Part shown: in pieces, positions 10,096 to 24,600 of the stretch
Position numbering within the stretch: the stretch's first letter is position 1
Layout of the letters: every line of letters begins with the position of its first letter
From: a virus
Direction: 5' to 3' (one strand)
DNA length: 29,949 bases
IMG/VR virus record: IMGVR_UViG_3300045973_000050
Coordinates: 1 to 29,949 of that record
The notes under the pieces: model-generated
What the model saw: only the letters and a program-made list of their open reading frames with translations
Told to the model about the DNA's origin: nothing
Database searches by the model: none
Program-made: the position numbers and the translations under genes

Positions 10096-11001
10096 ATGGG
10101 TAGTTCAGGTGGTGGTGGGAGTTCTGGAGCAGTAAGCCATTCAGCGTATTTGGAGACAGCGCATAAAGATTGGTTGGATAAAGCAGGTGTAGATACAATA
10201 GAAAAGTCTATAACAGAAGTTATGGACTCGGCATTAGGGAGTTCTCCTTGGACTGCGCTGACTGCATATAATCCAGATGTGGACATAGCAAGTTATGAAG
10301 CAGGAGTTACAGCATTTGCAGGAATTCTAGCTGGACTATCAGATACAGTTGACTGGGCTGCATTCTATGCGCAGGCTGCGTTGACTATTGATGGGATAGG
10401 TGATGTACAAATTGCATCAGATATCGCAGCGTTTCAGGCTCAATTAGATGACAATGTTACTACTCGAATCCTTCCGCGTTTTCGAAGGGGGATGCAAGAT
10501 ATCAATGCAGTAACTTCTTCAGCTTTTGCTATTGGCGAAGCTATCATCGAGGCATTTCAAGCAAGGGATGTGGCCAAGTATACCTCCTCACTCCGTATGG
10601 GTTTAGGTGATAAACGTCTTCAGGCCGTTGAGCAGATGATGAACTTAATGGCAAGAAGGGTAGGATGGAAAGAAAGTTATACAAAGATGTTGGTCGAGTC
10701 GAAGAGGATTAAGATCGTTGCGAAGAAGGAACAAATTGAGTCGGATGCGGCTATTGATGAGAAGGATGCCAAGTGGGACTTGGAAGTATTCCAGTATGGT
10801 GGGAATCTCATGGCGGCAATAGGTGGTGGAACAGCCATTCCGAACATGGCAGGAAAGAACCAGACCGCATCGGCAATAGGTGGAGCAATGACTGGAGCGG
10901 CTGCAGGTGCTATGATCGGCGCTCAGATGGGTGCTAGTGGTGGGCCTTATGGTGCAGCTGCAGGCCTTGTAATCGGAGCAGCTATCGGGATGATGAGTTA
11001 A
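10096..11001 (+). CDS. probable internal virion (ejection) protein with glycine zipper
   Basis: 301 residues. A Gly/Ser-rich start (about 1-14), then a helical body (about 20-230) with Ala-rich segments, and a C-terminal glycine-zipper region (about 245-301: GGAMTGAAAGAMIG, GGPYGAAAGLVIGAAIGMM). Glycine zippers insert into or span membranes. The location between tail-nozzle genes and two further long virion proteins matches the ejection-protein genes of podoviruses, which enter the host envelope with the DNA. No catalytic motif is seen. The role is inferred from composition and order. Confidence 0.6.
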   Translation: MGSSGGGGSSGAVSHSAYLETAHKDWLDKAGVDTIEKSITEVMDSALGSSPWTALTAYNPDVDIASYEAGVTAFAGILAGLSDTVDWAAFYAQAALTIDGIGDVQIASDIAAFQAQLDDNVTTRILPRFRRGMQDINAVTSSAFAIGEAIIEAFQARDVAKYTSSLRMGLGDKRLQAVEQMMNLMARRVGWKESYTKMLVESKRIKIVAKKEQIESDAAIDEKDAKWDLEVFQYGGNLMAAIGGGTAIPNMAGKNQTASAIGGAMTGAAAGAMIGAQMGASGGPYGAAAGLVIGAAIGMMS

Positions 11002-11016
11002 TAGGAGGATTTAAAT

Positions 11017-12246
11017 ATGGACAGTCAGTTGGCCTTAATGGCTATGAACTTAGGTGGTGGGCTAAGTAGATACGGACAAAATACTAACTCTGGTTCACCT
11101 TTGACAGAAATTAATAACCAAATGGTTCAAGGTATTACTACCCAGAATGCTGCGAAGAACCAGATGCAATTTATTCAGATGTTAAAGGAAGCATTTAACC
11201 CAGCTACAACATCTGAATTGAAAGCAGGTCCTAAAGGTCTAACGATGAGCCTTGACCCGAATTCAGAAATGATGAAGAATCTTCTTTCTGGCCCAGGTAG
11301 TAATGCTAGTGACTTCTATCAAGGTATAGGTGCAATGGGAAGTACTCCAGCACCTACGGCAGTTACTCCTACCCCAACCACAGGAGGCACCACACCTAAC
11401 CCTTTCGTCAGTGGTCAACCTAGTTTTTCTGCCTCAGACTTGGCTGGCCTAACACCGGAGATACTGGCAAGTAATCTTTCAGGGGCATTGAATGTAGTAG
11501 GGACGCAGAGTAAGTTAGGATTGGAAAGGGAGCAGTTGGCGAATAAGACTACTCAAGAACTATTCAATATGAAGTTGCAGATTGCCACACTTGCAGGCGA
11601 TCAAGCTTATAAGTCTAAGGTAATGGAAAATATAGAATCTGAGATATCTGCAAGGGCTAAAGACTACCCGCTTGGTGATACAGGTGTGATGGGTAGTGCT
11701 GCGGACTTCTTAGCTTATCAGAAGCTGTTGAAGGAGAATAATCCGACTGAGGTTAAGCTATATGAGTACGCAAAGAATCAAGGGTTCACTGGTAGTCTAC
11801 TAGACTTCAAAAACTCCGACAAGACAGGGCACCAGAAAGATTACGATGCAGCAGTTAAAAGTGGTTACAAGGGTGATTTTAATACCTGGATGTTAGACAT
11901 GGCTAAGGCTGGCGCGATTAATCTTGGAGCAAAAGTAGATGAAAAACGCGCTATGGGTGGAGTTGATAGGGAGAATGATATCCTTAAACCTAACTTTTAC
12001 CAGGGGATTGAGAAGGACCTATCGACTAGACTTAGGACCGATTGGAAGATGCCAAGTGAAGCTCCGACACTGGCTAAGCAGCATGGAATTAGTGAGGAAG
12101 CAGCAACTAAGGCTATACAACAAAGTCTAGTCCGTAGGGAAATGGATGCACAGATTAAGCAAGTGTATCCGAAAGCTACATGGGCTAAAGGTCAGGGTTG
12201 GATTGTAGATGGAAAGGTAGTCGTGAGGGATCCTTATGCCAAATGA
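11017..12246 (+). CDS. probable internal virion protein
   Basis: 409 residues with a strong AGGAGG ribosome site. The N-terminal part is Gln/Asn/Met-rich and helical (about 20-65), followed by a Pro/Thr/Gly-rich linker (about 108-135, with TPAPTAVTPTPTTGG) and a long helical, charged C-terminal half. Repeated YEYAKNQGFTGSLLDFKN and YDAAVKSGYKGDFNTWM segments (about 248-290) are two copies of a short sequence-structure repeat often seen in phage structural proteins. It probably works with its neighbours as an ejected or internal protein. Its end overlaps the giant gene by 11 bases. Confidence 0.6.
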   Translation: MDSQLALMAMNLGGGLSRYGQNTNSGSPLTEINNQMVQGITTQNAAKNQMQFIQMLKEAFNPATTSELKAGPKGLTMSLDPNSEMMKNLLSGPGSNASDFYQGIGAMGSTPAPTAVTPTPTTGGTTPNPFVSGQPSFSASDLAGLTPEILASNLSGALNVVGTQSKLGLEREQLANKTTQELFNMKLQIATLAGDQAYKSKVMENIESEISARAKDYPLGDTGVMGSAADFLAYQKLLKENNPTEVKLYEYAKNQGFTGSLLDFKNSDKTGHQKDYDAAVKSGYKGDFNTWMLDMAKAGAINLGAKVDEKRAMGGVDRENDILKPNFYQGIEKDLSTRLRTDWKMPSEAPTLAKQHGISEEAATKAIQQSLVRREMDAQIKQVYPKATWAKGQGWIVDGKVVVRDPYAK

Positions 12247-15200
12247 TTTCTTGGATTTAGGTACAGTTGCAGCGCCGACGGTTGAAGTGGGAGCGAACAG
12301 TTTCTTGGACCTCCCGAGTAAATCAGTAGATAGGTTTCCTACAACTCCAGATGCGCAGAAGGCATTGACATTGGAAGGGGAGTTTGGACTAGATGCGTTG
12401 AAGAAATCTAACCTTTCTAAGTTTAATGTAGTTGTACCCCCAGGAGTCGATCCAACTGTAATGGCAGAAGGGATTGTTAAGAATGGAGTGCCTGCTGTTG
12501 AGCCAAAGGTAGAGCCGAATAAGTACAATGATGCAGTCAGGCGGTATTACGAGACAGGCGAAAGTCCCTGGATGGCTCAGATGATTCCTGGACAGGGGTT
12601 GGATACAAGTATAATTCCTGGATCATATGACAAGGATGGAAATCTTACTGGACCTTCTATCAAATCACCATTAGGTCCAGAGCCTCCAGGTGGATATGAT
12701 AAACAAGGGAAACCATTAGATGAGAATGGTAAGAGGTATGTAGTCCCTTCAATGTCCGGTGAGATTGGAAAGGCTGTGTCGACGTTGTCGAGGCATATCT
12801 ATACCAAGGCTACAGCAGTGGCAGATGTTATTGGTACTCAGGTAGGTAACATAAGTGATGATTTGTTTAAGGCTTATGATAACTTAACCAAGACTAATCC
12901 GAATATGGCTAATGCGATTAAGGGGAATGCTATTGCACTGGAGACGATTGCTGCAACTGGATCTGGATTAGTTAATGCATTAGTTCATCCGCTTACTAAA
13001 CATACACAAGTAGCGTTAGGGAAGAGTGAAGAAGAGGCCACAGCATTTGCTAATAAGGCAGCAAGTGAGACTACCTATCAGCCGATTACAGAAGAGGGGA
13101 AGATATTAACTGAATCTGTGACAAAGGTACTTGGAATACCTTTTGAGTTGGCAGGGAAGTATATAGCGAAGCCGGCCAGGAAATTGTTTGAAGAGACAGT
13201 AGGTGACATAATCAAAGGTTATGGTGGAAGACCGGACATAGCTGGATCGTTGATCGAGGATATGTTGACGTTCTATTTTGGTGCTAAGGCGATTGGTAAA
13301 GGTCCGGAGATAGTTAAGGTTGCTACAGATGCAATCGGAGCAAAGAGGGTGGAAGGTTCGTTAGGATATACACCGTCAGTAGTACCACCGAAGACACCTT
13401 ATACAGGTACGGATTTTAAACCTATTATTCCTCCACCTGTTACTGGTGGTGAGGTTAAGACTGGTATTGCACCTGAGGATTTTTTATCTTTGCCTGAGAT
13501 CAAACCAGCCGATACAAAACCAATTGAGGTTAAATCTGAAGTTATACCTGAGGTTGTTAAAGATCCATTACAAGCAATGGTTGAGAAAGCCCAGGCAAAG
13601 ATAGACGAAGTTGTCAAGACTCAAGCAGATTTAGAGGCGGCTAAGACTGCGGTGGCTGAGACACCAGTTGAAGATGTGATTGCTGAGGAGTTGAAAGTTA
13701 AAGGGGAGAAGATACAGGAGATTCGAGATGGAGTGACTGACCAGACCGATCAAAAATTAATGGATCTTGTCGATGAAGATAAGTTAGATATTAGTGCGTT
13801 GGAAGAAGCGTTTCCAGAGGGTAAAGTAGACGCATTAAAAATTAATGAGACTAAGCCTGAAATAGTTAAAGAACCTAAATATGCCACACCTGAACAGGTT
13901 AAAGATTCACGTGTTACTGACCAAGCGATTGATATAGTAGCAGACAAAGTACCTGATGATATGCTTAATGGTGTAGTAGATAGGATATACAAAGCATATG
14001 AAAGAGAAGATATGTTATTGGAAGTAGATCCAGATGGAACTATGTTTAATAACTTGGATAATGCAGGAAAGAGAAAGATCATTAAAGACTTCTCAGACGC
14101 TAATGGAGAAGATTTTACATTGATGCAGAGGGTGTTTAGCGACTTGTTACCGAATAAGAAACAGAAGAGGATAGGGAATAAGAAAAAGAGAGAACCTATT
14201 ACCGAACTCGATGAACAACTTGGAACGCCTGGCCCGGAGTTACTTCAGCCCTCCAATCCTAAACATCCCTTTCGTGACAGCAATGTAGAGTACACTAATA
14301 CAATGAGTAAGATGTTTAAGGAAAAGTTACAAGGTGCAGGGAGGAGTATTGAAGTTTATACAAGGTATGCGATTAATGAAGTTAACAGATACCTCAATGG
14401 TGAAGACGTTAATATTGAGAAGGTTAGAGAAGTTCTAAGTGACCTTTCCTCCAAAGCCGAAGAGGCACGTAATCAGTTTGATCGCACTGATGATTTTGTT
14501 GCTTGGCAGAGAAATGTAGGGGAGGCAGCCAAGTGGGCGAGAGGAACTAATAGGGTTAGTAGTCCACAGAATGGAACTAAATTCATGATGGGAGTAGATC
14601 CAACTGATATAGTTAAAGTAGTAAACTATATGAAACAAAAACTTATAAAATCATTCTCGTCAGATAAGACACTTAATACATCTGGATATATCTTTGATGA
14701 TGGAAGAACTAGTAACTTAACACGGAAGATTAAGGGTGGTTATGAATCTATCCCACATGAAGCAGCTTTAGTGGATAAGTTAAATGATTTTGATAGGGAT
14801 GTGATTAGTTCTATTCTTAGTGGGGAAGTGAAAGATTTTATATTAGACGATTATCTAAAACAAAGTGGTACTGTAAGATATGTGAGAGAAGAAAACAACC
14901 ATATAAGTATTCAACTTGGTAAGCGACCTACAGAAAAACAAATGCAGATTATTGAAGATAGCCTACCACTTAATAGTAGGATTACAGTAGACTCTCCAGT
15001 AGGTCAGCAGACTATTGATAGTGAGATATTTAGAATATTTATTAACTCTCAGTTTAATCAATTAGACCAATTAAAAATTAATGGGTCTGGAGGGACTCAG
15101 TTAAATATGATGATTCCTGTGGATCAGATACCTGAGATGGTTAAGGATGTTTTGAAAGGGATTAAAGCTGCAGTAAAGCCTTTTAGTTCTGGTGGTAATG

Positions 15201-18200
15201 CTGTAGAAATATTTAAGGATTATCAGAATAGTCTCTATCGTAACAAAGAAGTCTTCGACAAAACTGGTTATTGGTTAGGAAAAGATGGAAAGTGGAGATA
15301 TGAGATTAAGGACGAAAGAGTGCATAATGAAACTTATCTTAATAGTACAGGAGAGTCTAATAGTGTAAATCACAGATTATACTTAGACATAGATGAAGTA
15401 GTGCACAGCCCTGAGTTGTATAAGGCTGTTCCAGAAGCTAAACAGATAAAGATAAGAGTTAATAAAGATTTAAATGCTGAAGGGACTTACTACTCAGATA
15501 GAAAGACTATCGAGATTAGAAAGTTTAATGAAGATACTATTATTCACGAACTTCAACATGCAGTTAATGATATAGTAGGGAGTAAGTTTAAAGGGACTAA
15601 TCCAAAAGCCCAAGAGAGGGTGAAGATATACGAAACTCTAAGTGAGATGAGAGACAAAGCAAAAAATGCTTCAGTACAGTTAGATATCGACAACGCACTT
15701 GAACAGTTAAATAAAGGTAAGAAAGAAACTATTTATTCAATTACTAAAGATATAGAAATGAATGCCTTTGGAACTGGTGATTATCAGACTATTATTGATC
15801 TGATCCATAAGCACTTTGAAGATACTGGCACCGATCGCTACATGAAAAACCCTGGTGAGATGGAAGCTAGGCTCGCGAGTAAGAGAATGGAGATGAGTGC
15901 GGAGCAGAGGAAGAAAACTCCTCCATGGGAGACGTTGGATAAGATGCTTGCTGATGAAGGATTTATCTCTCCTATTGATTGGGAAGATGGAAAACCTTAC
16001 TTTCCCACTAGGGGAACAGTCGGTCACAATCTCTACATGGGCATAGATCCTACTCGTATCAAGCAGATGTTCAAAGGCTTTCATGGTACAAGTAGTAAAT
16101 ATATCAAACCAGAAGATATGGTTGGTAAGTATCTTGAACCTAAAAGCCTCAAGCGTATAGTTGAAGATACTCTAGACGAACTTAAACTCTTTGGTGATGA
16201 GAGGAAAAAAGCTAAAGAGAAAATCTATGCAGAAGACTACTTTGATATGTCTAGAGACCCAAAGAAGTATGATTTGGAAGGTAGTGGCACTAGGCCCTTT
16301 GATAAACAAGGAGAAGTATACACAGCTAAGGATTTTGAGGACGCTGCAGACTATGCAAATTGGGCTGGAGAAGCATACGATAATGCCTTACTTGCATTAG
16401 CAGATGATTCTCCACTGGGAAAGCGAGCTAATGATATATATGAGAAGAATAGGTCTGCAACTCCTTATGTACTGGAAGTAGCATTTGATAAGCCTCTGAA
16501 AGAAGGAGATAATATTTCTAATAACCCAGTTAAAGTAACTGGAGTATTTGATCAGAAAGGAACTAGACTATTTTCTGGGGTAGATCCTACTCAAATCCCT
16601 GAAGCGACTCGAAGGATTATAGAAGGTGCAAAGAAACTTGCGGCTTATACTAATCAAGCAAGAGGGATGAAGGAGTGGAAACCTGCAGCGGCAGCGAAGA
16701 TGTTAAGGGAAGAGTTTAATCGTTCCTTTATTGACCGATCAGGTAATATCCGACAGAGACTATTGAGTGAGTTGGGAGATCAAGGATATGAAATAGTACA
16801 GAAAATGTACTTGAGCAAAGGTGCGAGTTCTCTCGCCGCACAACAGTTGAAGCAGATGAGAGGGGAAGTCTATGATGGGTTGAAGGGTAATGAGAGGAGA
16901 GTTCTAGATAATCTAATTCTAGCCGATCGTATGCTTGACATATCCAAGTATAAGACTGCTAAAGAATTTAAGTTTCCCGAAGGGTTGAGTCCGATTGAAG
17001 CTGCTGCGTATAATGAGTTGTTTCAATTCACCGAGAAGTTAACCGGAGAACAGGCGTCCCTCTTACGTGATCGAGCTAAGGCCTACTTCGATTGGATGAA
17101 GAAGCCATTGAAGGATATGTTGGATGCTGAGTTGATAAGCGAGCAAGAGTTTAATGATCTATCAAGTCACAACTACCGTCGGATTAAATTAGTAGATGTA
17201 TTCGACAAGCGATCTGTTTCCAAGACCGGTAAGACTAAACGTACGGTCTATGATTCAGGTGTGGAGGCCTTGTCCCGTGGACGAGATACAGATATCTTCG
17301 AGCCGAGTTCTGAGGTAATGGCATTGGAAGTATTCAATAGGGCTTATGGACGAATCTTGAATAACGGAGCTAATAGGACTCTACTTGACCTTGCCAGGCA
17401 AGATAGAACTAATCCATTTGTTCGGGTTAAGGAAACTCCAAAGGATGGAATCCCCACTGGATGGGATCGAGTGTTTGTGTATGAGAAAGGTGAACGTAAA
17501 GCACTTTACCTATCACCTGAAATGTCAAAGGAATGGATAACGAATAGTCCAGAGATGAGCTATAAGATGAGTCAGTTTCTTAGGTATGCAAGTGGGAGTC
17601 CTGTATTGAGAACCTTTGCGACCGGAATCAACTGGGGATTTGCACTTGCCAATTTACCCAGGGATATAATGCATATCTGGTATGCAGCTAGGACATTCCA
17701 AGATGGGAAGTGGAATCCTGTGTACAGTTCTAACATTCCAGTCTATGGGTTGCAGATAGGACATGATATAGGTAGTGTGTTTTCAGATGCTGTATTACGT
17801 AAAGGGAGGTATCAAGACTATATTAAAGAAGGTGGAGGGATGGAGTTCTTGGTGCATCAAGGCCGCCTAATGCAGCGTGGGAGACATATAGAAGGTGGAC
17901 TTGATAAAGTCATGGATTTCCTAGGTTACTTTGGCGAAACGTCAGAGATCATGATTAGGTTAGCGATTCGTGAACGAGTACTTCGTAATGGTAAGAGTAG
18001 TCAAGAAGCTACGTTTGTTGCTAGAGACTACATGGATTTTGGTCAGGGTGGTGGGTTAGGTAAGGCACTTGATAATGCTTTTCCTTATCTTAATGCAAGT
18101 ATACAAGGTACAAGGGGATTGTTTAGAGCGTTTAAAGATAATCCGTTACAGTCTACGTATAAGACTGCGCAGTTCGCAGCGTTAGTAACTGGGCTTTATA

Positions 18201-19258
18201 TCTACAATAACAACAGAAATCCCGAAACTATGAAATCCCTGAAGGGAAACATAGATATGCAGAATAACTTGGTGATTCCATTAGGAGATGGATTTAGTTA
18301 TCTGGATGAGAAGGGGCAGACCAGGTATCCGTTTATAAAGATTCCACTTGATCCTGGACAGAGGTTTTTCAAGACTATGTTCGAGGCTAGTACAGATAAG
18401 TGGTTAGGGAATCAAATAGATGTAGATGCAGTTACTAATACATTAAGTCAGATTTCTCCAGTAGGGATTAGTTCTTTGCCACCGACAGTTTCGGGTGCCT
18501 TAGGCTATATGTATAATAAGGACTTTTGGAAGAACGAAGATATATGGAAGAAGACTGACAAACCTTTTAGTTGGCCACAGAGTAAGCAGGAGTTTATCCC
18601 AGGACAGACACCTCAAGCAATGGTTGATCTTGGATCGGCTACTGGATTATCACCGGAGAGGACTAAGCACGCGATTGAGCAGTTGATTACAAGTGGTTCC
18701 GAATGGGCTTGGTTATCTGGATATGGATACGATAAGGTATTTAGTAACCTACCGAAATCTCAGAAGGAACAACACCTAGCGGAGGTATTGACTAAGGTTC
18801 CAGGTGTCAGGCGATTTATAGGAGTGACTAATCCCTATTCGCAATTTGCTAGTCCAGTCGAACAGGCGAGGGAAGATAGTTCGTTGCAGAGATGGACTGA
18901 GAATAGGGGACTTGACGCATTAGTAGATGGTTATTTATACCAAAAGAATACTAAGCGAGAGGAAATTAATAGTTATATTAAAGGGTTTAAAGATCCTGAT
19001 ACACAAGATAGATTGTTAAGTAGGTTTGAGTTTTCCCAGTCGATTAAAGAACTTTCCAATCGTTCCTTTTGGCTTGCGTTGAAAGGTACGCCTGATACAG
19101 AGGCGAGAGCTAGATTGTATGTGGAGAGGTTGAATGGTTCTACTCCAGTACAGCAGCAAGCATTACGTAAAGAGCTTACGATTGTAGATGCTGCTGGTGG
19201 AGTAGTATCTGATTCATTCTTAGATGAAGTAGCTAGGTTAAGAAATAAGACGCATTAA
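12236..19258 (+). CDS. giant polyvalent virion protein (metalloprotease-like + ART-like + helical C-terminal module)
   Basis: 2340 residues, about a quarter of the window. The N-terminal part (1-380) is mixed helical; about 380-560 is Pro/Lys/Glu-rich linker. From about 1007 (FDKTGYWLGKDGKWRYEI) there is a metalloprotease-like domain with HELQH at 1104-1108 and a likely third zinc ligand in GEMEAR (1207-1212), like the phage 'large polyvalent protein' peptidase domains. An ADP-ribosyltransferase-like domain follows at about 1280-1440 (FHGTSS at 1282-1287, then VYTAKDFEDAADYA from 1361). Residues about 1500-2300 are a long helical module with NLPRD and a C-terminal part resembling LPD38. The motif G-V/I-D-P-T recurs at 70, 786, 1269 and 1448. 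It is likely packaged and injected, giving early host-modifying activities. Two palindrome copies lie inside the frame. Domain calls are by motif only. Confidence 0.75.
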   Translation: MPNDFLDLGTVAAPTVEVGANSFLDLPSKSVDRFPTTPDAQKALTLEGEFGLDALKKSNLSKFNVVVPPGVDPTVMAEGIVKNGVPAVEPKVEPNKYNDAVRRYYETGESPWMAQMIPGQGLDTSIIPGSYDKDGNLTGPSIKSPLGPEPPGGYDKQGKPLDENGKRYVVPSMSGEIGKAVSTLSRHIYTKATAVADVIGTQVGNISDDLFKAYDNLTKTNPNMANAIKGNAIALETIAATGSGLVNALVHPLTKHTQVALGKSEEEATAFANKAASETTYQPITEEGKILTESVTKVLGIPFELAGKYIAKPARKLFEETVGDIIKGYGGRPDIAGSLIEDMLTFYFGAKAIGKGPEIVKVATDAIGAKRVEGSLGYTPSVVPPKTPYTGTDFKPIIPPPVTGGEVKTGIAPEDFLSLPEIKPADTKPIEVKSEVIPEVVKDPLQAMVEKAQAKIDEVVKTQADLEAAKTAVAETPVEDVIAEELKVKGEKIQEIRDGVTDQTDQKLMDLVDEDKLDISALEEAFPEGKVDALKINETKPEIVKEPKYATPEQVKDSRVTDQAIDIVADKVPDDMLNGVVDRIYKAYEREDMLLEVDPDGTMFNNLDNAGKRKIIKDFSDANGEDFTLMQRVFSDLLPNKKQKRIGNKKKREPITELDEQLGTPGPELLQPSNPKHPFRDSNVEYTNTMSKMFKEKLQGAGRSIEVYTRYAINEVNRYLNGEDVNIEKVREVLSDLSSKAEEARNQFDRTDDFVAWQRNVGEAAKWARGTNRVSSPQNGTKFMMGVDPTDIVKVVNYMKQKLIKSFSSDKTLNTSGYIFDDGRTSNLTRKIKGGYESIPHEAALVDKLNDFDRDVISSILSGEVKDFILDDYLKQSGTVRYVREENNHISIQLGKRPTEKQMQIIEDSLPLNSRITVDSPVGQQTIDSEIFRIFINSQFNQLDQLKINGSGGTQLNMMIPVDQIPEMVKDVLKGIKAAVKPFSSGGNAVEIFKDYQNSLYRNKEVFDKTGYWLGKDGKWRYEIKDERVHNETYLNSTGESNSVNHRLYLDIDEVVHSPELYKAVPEAKQIKIRVNKDLNAEGTYYSDRKTIEIRKFNEDTIIHELQHAVNDIVGSKFKGTNPKAQERVKIYETLSEMRDKAKNASVQLDIDNALEQLNKGKKETIYSITKDIEMNAFGTGDYQTIIDLIHKHFEDTGTDRYMKNPGEMEARLASKRMEMSAEQRKKTPPWETLDKMLADEGFISPIDWEDGKPYFPTRGTVGHNLYMGIDPTRIKQMFKGFHGTSSKYIKPEDMVGKYLEPKSLKRIVEDTLDELKLFGDERKKAKEKIYAEDYFDMSRDPKKYDLEGSGTRPFDKQGEVYTAKDFEDAADYANWAGEAYDNALLALADDSPLGKRANDIYEKNRSATPYVLEVAFDKPLKEGDNISNNPVKVTGVFDQKGTRLFSGVDPTQIPEATRRIIEGAKKLAAYTNQARGMKEWKPAAAAKMLREEFNRSFIDRSGNIRQRLLSELGDQGYEIVQKMYLSKGASSLAAQQLKQMRGEVYDGLKGNERRVLDNLILADRMLDISKYKTAKEFKFPEGLSPIEAAAYNELFQFTEKLTGEQASLLRDRAKAYFDWMKKPLKDMLDAELISEQEFNDLSSHNYRRIKLVDVFDKRSVSKTGKTKRTVYDSGVEALSRGRDTDIFEPSSEVMALEVFNRAYGRILNNGANRTLLDLARQDRTNPFVRVKETPKDGIPTGWDRVFVYEKGERKALYLSPEMSKEWITNSPEMSYKMSQFLRYASGSPVLRTFATGINWGFALANLPRDIMHIWYAARTFQDGKWNPVYSSNIPVYGLQIGHDIGSVFSDAVLRKGRYQDYIKEGGGMEFLVHQGRLMQRGRHIEGGLDKVMDFLGYFGETSEIMIRLAIRERVLRNGKSSQEATFVARDYMDFGQGGGLGKALDNAFPYLNASIQGTRGLFRAFKDNPLQSTYKTAQFAALVTGLYIYNNNRNPETMKSLKGNIDMQNNLVIPLGDGFSYLDEKGQTRYPFIKIPLDPGQRFFKTMFEASTDKWLGNQIDVDAVTNTLSQISPVGISSLPPTVSGALGYMYNKDFWKNEDIWKKTDKPFSWPQSKQEFIPGQTPQAMVDLGSATGLSPERTKHAIEQLITSGSEWAWLSGYGYDKVFSNLPKSQKEQHLAEVLTKVPGVRRFIGVTNPYSQFASPVEQAREDSSLQRWTENRGLDALVDGYLYQKNTKREEINSYIKGFKDPDTQDRLLSRFEFSQSIKELSNRSFWLALKGTPDTEARARLYVERLNGSTPVQQQALRKELTIVDAAGGVVSDSFLDEVARLRNKTH
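13828..13852. promoter_or_regulatory. 25-bp palindromic element, copy 6 (inside giant ORF)
   Basis: Arms AGACGC and GAGACT flank ATTAA-AAA-TTAAT. It is read in the frame that avoids the TAA, giving DALKINET at residues 532-539 of the polyvalent protein. Confidence 0.8.
15064..15088. promoter_or_regulatory. 25-bp palindromic element, copy 7 (inside giant ORF)
   Basis: Arms AGACCA and GGGTCT flank ATTAA-AAA-TTAAT. It is read as DQLKINGS at residues 944-951, the same LKIN as copy 6, directly before a glycine-rich linker. Confidence 0.8.
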
Positions 19259-23286: not shown

Positions 23287-24600
23287 TTATTTCATTGAGT
23301 GGACTTTGACTAAGAAGGAATCTTTGTAACCCTTCCCAAGTTCGAAACCAATAGCTGACATACCTACTTGCTGAGCTGCTATTAGACCATTGCCACTCCC
23401 AAGGAAAGGTATTAAGATACGCGAACCAGGAAAGGCAAATGTCTCGTATACATCTTTCATTAACTCAACAGGCCTTTCAGTAGGATGAGTTTTTTGTTGA
23501 GGTGGTACTGGAGAGTAATTGAAAGAGTTTCCACTTCGCTGTCTTGCGATTGCTGGTCTACCTTTCCAAGCATAGAAGAACATCTCGTATGAGTTTGGAA
23601 GGTGCATTTCAGGCCGCTTTGTTTGTCCAGTAGGTTTTGTCCAAATAGGACACATTCTTGTTGTTTCAAATCCTGCATTGATAATCTCCTTGTAGACTAT
23701 ATCAAACCAAGGTTCCGGTGCAAACCAGCAAAGTAACCAGGAGTGATCGGCCATGACTCGGTAACATTCATGGAAGAGTTTGGATAGGAATGGTTGGTAA
23801 GAATCGGCCGGAACTTCATTGTAATCAGCTTGGACGTATTGAGATTCACCGTCAGATTTCTTCGCATCCTGGAGGGCAATGGCATAGGGCGGATCTATCT
23901 CAACCAAGTGGAATACACCAGCAGGGATTTCCTTAACACCTTCGAAAAAGTCTTTGATGATAAAGGATTGAGCTAACTTCTGAAGTTGTTTGTCATCTGT
24001 ATTGGATACAAGTTTCTCAGCAATCACTTGTTTGATCAAAGCCTCATCCATCTTCTGGATTACCTTCGTAGCATCCGAGGCAGTCTTGCAACCGTCAAAG
24101 AGTTCCGGACAGGCTTCGCGGAGGTTAGCGCGCTTGATTGCCTGGGACACAGCGCCTTGGGTCACGCCTAACATTACACCAGTGTCGGTTACCGAGTGGC
24201 CGGTTGAGCCAGGACCAGGTGCCTTGACTCCGTGGATAGCTTGCTGCATCTGATGAATTTCAAGAGTGAGCCGGTCGAACTCAAAATACTCCATGTCTTT
24301 ACGATGAAAGTTTTCAGATTTTTCAATGATCTTCATCTCGAGCTCTGAAAGGGCTTCGTCGTAGATGCGGACAGGTATTAGGTCTACACTGTTCCGGCTG
24401 AGGACTGTAAAGCGTCGTTCACCAGCGAGAAGGAGAAAGGTTCCATCTCCATTATCCATCACTGCGAGGGGTGAGATAAGGCCAGATTCTTTCATGTTAG
24501 ATTCGAGACCGTCTAAGTCACCCATTATTTCTCGTGCACGGTCAGATACCATTATGCTAGATGTAGCAATCATTCCTACCTTTCCAACTGATATAGACAT
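23287..24600 (-). CDS. ParB-like nuclease/DNA-binding domain fused to DNA methyltransferase
   Basis: 437 residues. The N-terminal ParB/sulfiredoxin-like domain (about 8-95) carries LAGERRFTVLSR with GERR at 60-63. It is followed by a helix-turn-helix region (about 137-158, TDTGVMLGVTQGAVSQAIKRA). The C-terminal half is an N6-adenine or N4-cytosine methyltransferase with DPPY at 236-239, HPTERP near 363-368, and the S-adenosylmethionine motif FLGSG at 399-403; DPPY before FxGxG marks the beta-class order. Such fusions are common in phages and probably methylate phage DNA at specific sites, to resist host restriction or mark DNA. No restriction enzyme partner is next to it. GGAGGT precedes the ATG, which overlaps the previous stop (TAATG). 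Confidence 0.88.
   Translation of the reverse strand: MSISVGKVGMIATSSIMVSDRAREIMGDLDGLESNMKESGLISPLAVMDNGDGTFLLLAGERRFTVLSRNSVDLIPVRIYDEALSELEMKIIEKSENFHRKDMEYFEFDRLTLEIHQMQQAIHGVKAPGPGSTGHSVTDTGVMLGVTQGAVSQAIKRANLREACPELFDGCKTASDATKVIQKMDEALIKQVIAEKLVSNTDDKQLQKLAQSFIIKDFFEGVKEIPAGVFHLVEIDPPYAIALQDAKKSDGESQYVQADYNEVPADSYQPFLSKLFHECYRVMADHSWLLCWFAPEPWFDIVYKEIINAGFETTRMCPIWTKPTGQTKRPEMHLPNSYEMFFYAWKGRPAIARQRSGNSFNYSPVPPQQKTHPTERPVELMKDVYETFAFPGSRILIPFLGSGNGLIAAQQVGMSAIGFELGKGYKDSFLVKVHSMK

What the first reader, a model, noticed from the sequence alone, without database searches (positions are those of the whole stretch)
12236..19258. 2340-residue polyvalent protein with peptidase-like and ART-like domains
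HELQH (1104-1108) plus a downstream GEMEAR (1207-1212) suggest an active zinc peptidase, and FHGTSS (1282) with the following VYTAKDFEDAADYA pattern suggests an ADP-ribosyltransferase fold. Both are in one protein placed after the internal-virion genes, so two host-attacking activities may be injected with the DNA. Large polyvalent proteins are known from phages and mobile elements, but this combination and its targets are not something I can name.
Basis: partly seen in the sequence, partly recalled or inferred. Interest (0 to 1): 0.7.

Follow-up and report, generated by a model that had tools for sequence, protein, structure and literature searches.

The report
Phage-injected protein with exchangeable effector modules
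This is a very large phage protein, of a known kind probably packed in the virus particle and injected with its DNA, that carries a protease module with an intact active site and a divergent, possibly inactive ADP-ribosyltransferase-like module in a slot where related phages swap such modules in and out.

Summary
In detail: one 2340-aa ORF at 12236-19258 has HELQH (1104), GEMEAR (1207), FHGTSS (1282) and VYTAKDFEDAADYA (1361) where stated. The combination is not unnamed. It is a phage "polyvalent protein" (Iyer et al. 2017), a class in which zincin-plus-ART fusions were already described.

The first part is an LPD23-linked zincin with all zinc and catalytic residues intact. HExxH plus GExE[A/S] occurs in 88 of 93 LPD23/zincin ORFs fetched, and 20 of these 93 also carry a classical ART.

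The second part, residues 1279-1447, is an ART-like domain that Pfam, NCBIfam and PHROGs do not recognise. It has homologues in other phage contigs and a confident AlphaFold2 model. Nearly all PDB matches over it are ARTs (Tre toxins, KptA, cholera toxin A). It keeps the strand-1 His and strand-2 Tyr, but has no conserved acid on strand 5, so its activity is doubtful.

Both sit between a conserved helical domain and an LPD38-type C-terminal scaffold. In about 30 syntenic relatives this slot is empty or holds other modules, mostly separated by a recurrent peptide (LYxGIDP/LNMMIP). Virion packaging is supported by proteomics of related proteins only. Targets are unknown.

The parts
12236..19258 (+). 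Polyvalent protein gene, 2340 aa
   Evidence: Open frame, ATG start; about 30 syntenic homologues
14183..14569 (+). Conserved helical 'mid' domain, aa 650-778, N-terminal border of the cassette slot
   Evidence: HMM hit in nearly all family members; AlphaFold2 helices with block pLDDT mostly 72-97
14573..14605 (+). Junction peptide 1, GTKFMMGVDPT (aa 780-790)
   Evidence: Motif 45 observed vs 0.65 expected in the family
14606..15085 (+). Module X, aa 791-950, unknown function; lower GC3 (0.23) than the flanks (0.36-0.38)
   Evidence: 47% identical module in L127; composition
15092..15124 (+). Junction peptide 2, GTQLNMMIPVD (aa 953-963), the form that precedes LPD23
15242..15325 (+). LPD23 core, aa 1003-1030 (TGYWLGKDGKWRYEI)
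   Evidence: PF18838, 30.6 bits in the full protein against cut-off 27, 3.2e-8 for the segment
15383..15970 (+). Zincin metallopeptidase domain, aa 1050-1245
   Evidence: Homologues in phages F116, H66, AF, 8P and Pseudomonas phage-like plasmids; AlphaFold2 three strands, HExxH helix, second helix with Glu
15545..15559 (+). HELQH zinc-binding/catalytic motif (aa 1104-1108)
15854..15871 (+). GEMEAR, predicted third zinc ligand Glu (aa 1207-1212)
   Evidence: GExEAR invariant in A1
16025..16054 (+). Junction peptide 3, HNLYMGIDPT (aa 1264-1273)
16070..16576 (+). ART-like module, aa 1279-1447 (His1283 on strand 1, Tyr1362 on strand 2)
   Evidence: Homologues L111/L112, L121, L128, L132; AlphaFold2 block pLDDT about 79-96 over most of it; PDB matches are nearly all ARTs
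16559..16591 (+). Junction peptide 4, GTRLFSGVDPT (aa 1442-1452), overlaps the last ART strand
16592..19255 (+). LPD38-type C-terminal scaffold, aa 1453-2340
   Evidence: BFVD matches to LPD38 proteins, E 3.5e-15; PF18857 hits 4 of 31 family members, best 2.5e-10
10096..11001 (+). Upstream neighbour with C-terminal Gly-zipper-like stretch, likely ejection protein; context
   Evidence: Weak Pfam hit PF13441 0.003; syntenic in 33 loci
11017..12246 (+). Upstream neighbour, 409 aa, likely internal virion protein; context
   Evidence: Syntenic in 23 loci

Best explanation
It is a phage-type polyvalent protein. A conserved N-terminal/mid region and an LPD38-type helical C-terminus form a scaffold that is probably packed into the virion and ejected with the DNA. 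Between them lies a slot of exchangeable modules, which here holds an unknown module X, an LPD23-linked zincin protease and an ART-like domain. Shown: the module boundaries, the homology, intact zincin residues, the swapping of modules among relatives, and an ART-type predicted fold. Inferred: packaging and ejection of this protein, proteolytic activity, and that the ART-like domain binds NAD+ or modifies a host molecule early in infection. The zincin more likely acts as an accessory effector or optional processor than as the obligatory releaser of the other modules.
For: Zincin: LPD23 above Pfam cut-off; HExxH and GExEAR conserved across phages and plasmids; model with the expected strands and helices. 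ART: conserved module in other contigs, two of them on unrelated scaffolds; rows over model residues 634-811 are TreTu Z 7.7, TreX Z 7.3, T. kodakarensis KptA Z 6.3, 2aua (unknown function) Z 5.9 and cholera toxin A Z 5.0. Scaffold: LPD38. Slot: module map. Virion: LPD38-bearing JC1 gp69 gave 51 unique peptides from purified virions (PMC9144972); the LPD23/zincin protein of H66 is annotated as verified in the virion by mass spectrometry. Synteny with capsid and neighbouring virion-region genes.
Against: No proteomics for this phage. ART profiles do not detect the ART module and the acid of strand 5 is missing. All VIA-align Z values are under 8, which the tool says can be a common arrangement. 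The PDB Foldseek list gave no significant hit for the zincin. The Pfam LPD38 model does not hit the window protein itself.
Confidence: 0.75

Rival explanations
1. The zincin is a self-processing protease that cuts the ejected polyprotein at the repeated junction peptides and sets the modules free, as Iyer et al. proposed in general.
For: Junction peptides sit at each module border in this protein; Iyer et al. argue for autoprocessing, citing cleavage of P1 DdrB.
Against: The junction peptide stays in family members without a zincin (L096, L097, L098, L110, L117). Three members that carry module X or a classical ART have no HExxH at all (L109, L117, L127). L014 keeps the domain with YEVQH in place of HExxH. 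N4 vRNAP is packaged uncut.
Confidence: 0.3
2. The ART-like module is catalytically dead or is a binding domain that reuses the ART fold.
For: No conserved Asp/Glu on strand 5; strand-2 Tyr is Phe in L121 and L128.
Against: His-Gly-Thr-Ser, an Arg, the GEAYD motif and LEV..K.GD are invariant over 45-57% identity, which suggests a kept active site; KptA-type ARTs work without a strand-5 Glu (general knowledge, not tested here).
Confidence: 0.4
3. The segment 1279-1447 is not an ART at all; HGTS and VYTA are coincidental motifs in another alpha/beta fold.
For: No ART profile reaches significance.
Against: The PDB matches over this region are nearly all from several different ART subfamilies, and one relative has a weak KptA profile hit (PF01885 E 0.051) covering the same HGTS.
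Confidence: 0.15

Closest known systems
Phage polyvalent proteins with zincin MPTase and ART (Iyer et al. 2017, PMC5512222)
   Same: One giant phage polypeptide with a zincin, an ART and LPD domains, encoded with virion genes
   Different: Their ARTs belong to the HYD2 clade (His, Tyr, Asp); this ART-like module is a separate family lacking that Asp
PLxRFG / LPD23 proteins of Pseudomonas phages F116 and H66
   Same: Same LPD23 plus zincin block; the H66 protein is annotated as found in the virion by mass spectrometry
   Different: Other partner domains, classical ART-PolyVal in F116; about 25-29% identity in the zincin only
DarB-like gp69 of Burkholderia phage JC1 (Bcep22 group)
   Same: C-terminal LPD38, abundant in purified virions
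   Different: Carries transglycosylase, methylase/helicase and LPD3 domains; no LPD23 or ART reported in that table
Phage N4 virion RNA polymerase
   Same: Ejected giant protein with an HExxH domain followed by a large helical C-terminus (PMC12633501)
   Different: Has an RNA polymerase; homology of the helical parts was not tested here
KptA and Tre-type ARTs
   Same: Best fold matches of the ART-like module
   Different: No significant sequence similarity; catalytic set not shown to be shared
T4 Alt
   Same: Model for an ART packed in the head and injected
   Different: R-S-E class ART, stand-alone, no zincin

Membership tests
Phage-type polyvalent protein | Several unrelated activities in one very large polypeptide | tested here: met
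   mid, X, LPD23-zincin, ART-like, LPD38 in 2340 aa
Phage-type polyvalent protein | Encoded with virion morphogenesis genes | tested here: met
   Synteny with major head protein and conserved downstream virion-region genes
Phage-type polyvalent protein | Packaged and injected with DNA | not testable with these tools
   Only by analogy to JC1 gp69 and the H66 protein
LPD23 (PF18838) | Score above the gathering cut-off | tested here: met
   30.6 bits vs 27
Zincin-like metallopeptidase of polyvalent proteins | HExxH on a helix | tested here: met
   HELQH in helix 1099-1113
Zincin-like metallopeptidase of polyvalent proteins | Third zinc ligand Glu on a following helix | tested here: met
   GEMEAR in helix 1206-1218, invariant in A1 homologues
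Zincin-like metallopeptidase of polyvalent proteins | Fold match to a solved zincin | tested here: inconclusive
   Only a weak selecase (minigluzincin) row, 4qhf prob 0.47, 56 columns, rmsd 2.5
Zincin-like metallopeptidase of polyvalent proteins | Proteolytic activity | not testable with these tools
   Needs protein
ART superfamily | ART fold | tested here: met
   Model of 1279-1447 matches TreTu Z 7.7, TreX 7.3, KptA 6.3, cholera toxin A 5.0; moderate, all Z under 8
ART superfamily | His on strand 1 and Tyr on strand 2 | tested here: met
   H1283 invariant; Y1362, Phe in two relatives
ART superfamily | NAD+-dependent transfer | not testable with these tools
   Needs protein
ART-PolyVal / Tox-ART-HYD2 clade | Asp on strand 5 | tested here: not met
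   Strand 5 VKVTGVF has no conserved acid
ART-PolyVal / Tox-ART-HYD2 clade | Sequence-profile similarity | tested here: not met
   HMM score -3.3; hhalign prob 20%, 12 columns
LPD38 (PF18857) | Pfam match of the window protein | tested here: not met
   No hit for the window; 4 of 31 close relatives hit, best 2.5e-10
LPD38 (PF18857) | Same predicted fold | tested here: met
   BFVD LPD38 proteins E 3.5e-15 and 1.4e-14 over about 890-1020 alignment columns

The most novel reading that the evidence does not exclude
The 170-aa HGTS...AGEAYDNAL module is a new family of ART-fold enzymes with a non-canonical active site (no strand-5 acid), carried as one of several interchangeable warheads. The warheads are inserted and removed between short repeated junction peptides in an ejected phage scaffold, so that phages of one lineage re-arm by recombination at the junctions.
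Probability: 0.3. Interest if true: 0.55.

Novelty: new member of a known kind. Interest (0 to 1): 0.35.

Why it matters
Polyvalent proteins are predicted to be first-wave weapons of phages, but few have a clear natural experiment attached. Here about 30 syntenic relatives differ mainly in which modules fill one slot, so the roles of the zincin, the ART-like domain and the junction peptide can be separated by comparing natural variants. The ART-like module adds a domain family absent from Pfam, NCBIfam and PHROGs.

Tried and rejected
Direct family look-up of the ART segment in Pfam, NCBIfam and PHROGs: nothing significant. tblastn of the ART segment in phage and plasmid records: no match. Two viral scans and one genome scan with single-sequence queries found no relative; relatives appeared only after the C-terminal profile scan. 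A classical ART-PolyVal HMM built from fetched loci does not score the window. PDB fold matches for the C-terminal domain: only common helical arrangements, Z 5.8 or less. The idea that junction peptides are obligatory zincin sites was weakened by zincin-less members that keep them. The zincin HMM hit in L127 was discarded: L127 was itself a row of that alignment and has no HExxH, and an HMM rebuilt without it no longer hits L127. The hit at 396-582 in L107 was not pursued. Two family calls failed on a frame error and were repeated.

Full report
Observation. The window is a whole 29,949-base virus record, with a major head protein upstream and primase, DNA polymerase and ParB-methyltransferase genes on the opposite strand downstream. 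No near-identical phage record exists in the collection searched.

Zincin. Pfam finds LPD23 at 1003-1030 above its cut-off. tblastn of 985-1280 finds LPD23 proteins of Pseudomonas phages and phage-like plasmids. In the alignments TG..., DGKWR, HExQH and GExEAR are invariant or nearly so. Of 93 ORFs with this block, 88 keep both HExxH and GExE[A/S]; of the five exceptions L014 has lost the first His and in several others the match runs to the end of the ORF, so the second motif may simply be cut off. The model places HELQH on helix 1099-1113 after three strands and GEMEAR on helix 1206-1218, as Iyer et al. describe for this class. Twenty of the ORFs also carry a classical ART, so zincin plus ART is common.

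ART-like module. Direct searches failed, and no ART profile scores it significantly. A scan with the C-terminal profile brought relatives L111 (46% identical) and L121 (51%) with the same module, and a further scan brought L128 and L132 on unrelated polyvalent scaffolds. The alignment shows invariant HGTS.K, YA..AGEAYD.AL, VLEV and K.GD. AlphaFold2 models most of it with block pLDDT of about 79-96. In the PDB comparison the rows over this part are TreTu, TreX, KptA, a protein of unknown function (2aua) and cholera toxin A chains. The predicted strands are FKGFHGTS, EVYTA, PYVLEVAF, DNIS, VKVTGVF and RLFS. The His and Tyr positions fit an ART of the H-Y type; strand 5 has no conserved acid. I therefore call it an ART fold with doubtful activity, not a member of the HYD2 clade.

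Scaffold and slot. Residues 1442-2340 are shared by about 30 syntenic proteins and match LPD38 by fold and, in four relatives, by sequence. Between the mid domain and LPD38, relatives carry nothing recognisable (L094, L098, L106, L123, L124), the zincin (13 relatives), X (L127), this ART-like module (L111, L121), or a classical ART (L109, L117); where several of these occur, the order is always mid, X, zincin, ART, LPD38. Most modules end with a peptide such as GTKLYSGIP or GTRLFSGVDPT; 45 matches were seen against 0.65 expected from shuffles. The pattern was drawn up after looking at these proteins, so the ratio describes enrichment and is not an independent test. The single junction of the cassette-less L123 resembles window junction 1 in its first half and junction 4 in its second (30 and 27 matching bases of 46-47, versus 24 and 17 the other way). 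This fits loss or gain of modules by recombination at junctions, but is one case and not proof. GC3 of the modules (0.23-0.33) is lower than that of the flanks (0.36-0.38).

Mechanism. Related proteins are virion components: JC1 gp69 with LPD38 (51 unique peptides; PMC9144972) and the H66 LPD23 protein. Together with the synteny and the neighbouring Gly-zipper-like protein, this makes packaging and ejection likely. A cis-releasing role of the zincin is possible but not general: L109, L117 and L127 carry modules without any HExxH, and L014 keeps a dead copy.

Verdict. An ordinary architecture of a published class, with one uncharted ART-like family and an unusually clear module-swapping series.

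Noticed in passing
L014, ORF from 2084, zincin region: The zincin reads YEVQH instead of HExxH and lacks the segment before the Glu motif: a decayed protease kept in an otherwise intact polyvalent protein.
   Followed up: partly
L113, N-terminus of ORF from 5677: A transglycosylase-like stretch (LLANVIKTESQFDPSAKSPAGAVGIAQIMP) lies in the N-terminal region, so that region also swaps modules.
   Followed up: no
L016/L107 aa 466 and L111 aa 499: A second, different HExxH domain lies before the mid domain.
   Followed up: no
window aa 5-26 and N-termini of L096, L097, L113, L116: Short repeated N-terminal motifs (FLDL, LLDI, LTDQM, GLEFL) recur in tandem; perhaps a packaging or binding signal.
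   Followed up: no
L097 cassette, aa 665-1075: An unnamed cassette module with KKILFIEEMQGPSG and GFDGVAWTPGEIQANRY; Pfam has no name for it.
   Followed up: no
L112: Nearly the same protein as L111 but split over several frames in the contig; sequencing error or decay.
   Followed up: no
window 23287-24600 (-): ParB-like domain fused to an N6/N4 DNA methylase, conserved across the family.
   Followed up: partly
L008 (plasmid p382, P. aeruginosa): One protein with about a dozen ART-PolyVal copies plus an LPD23 zincin, like the 12-ART protein that Iyer et al. mention.
   Followed up: no
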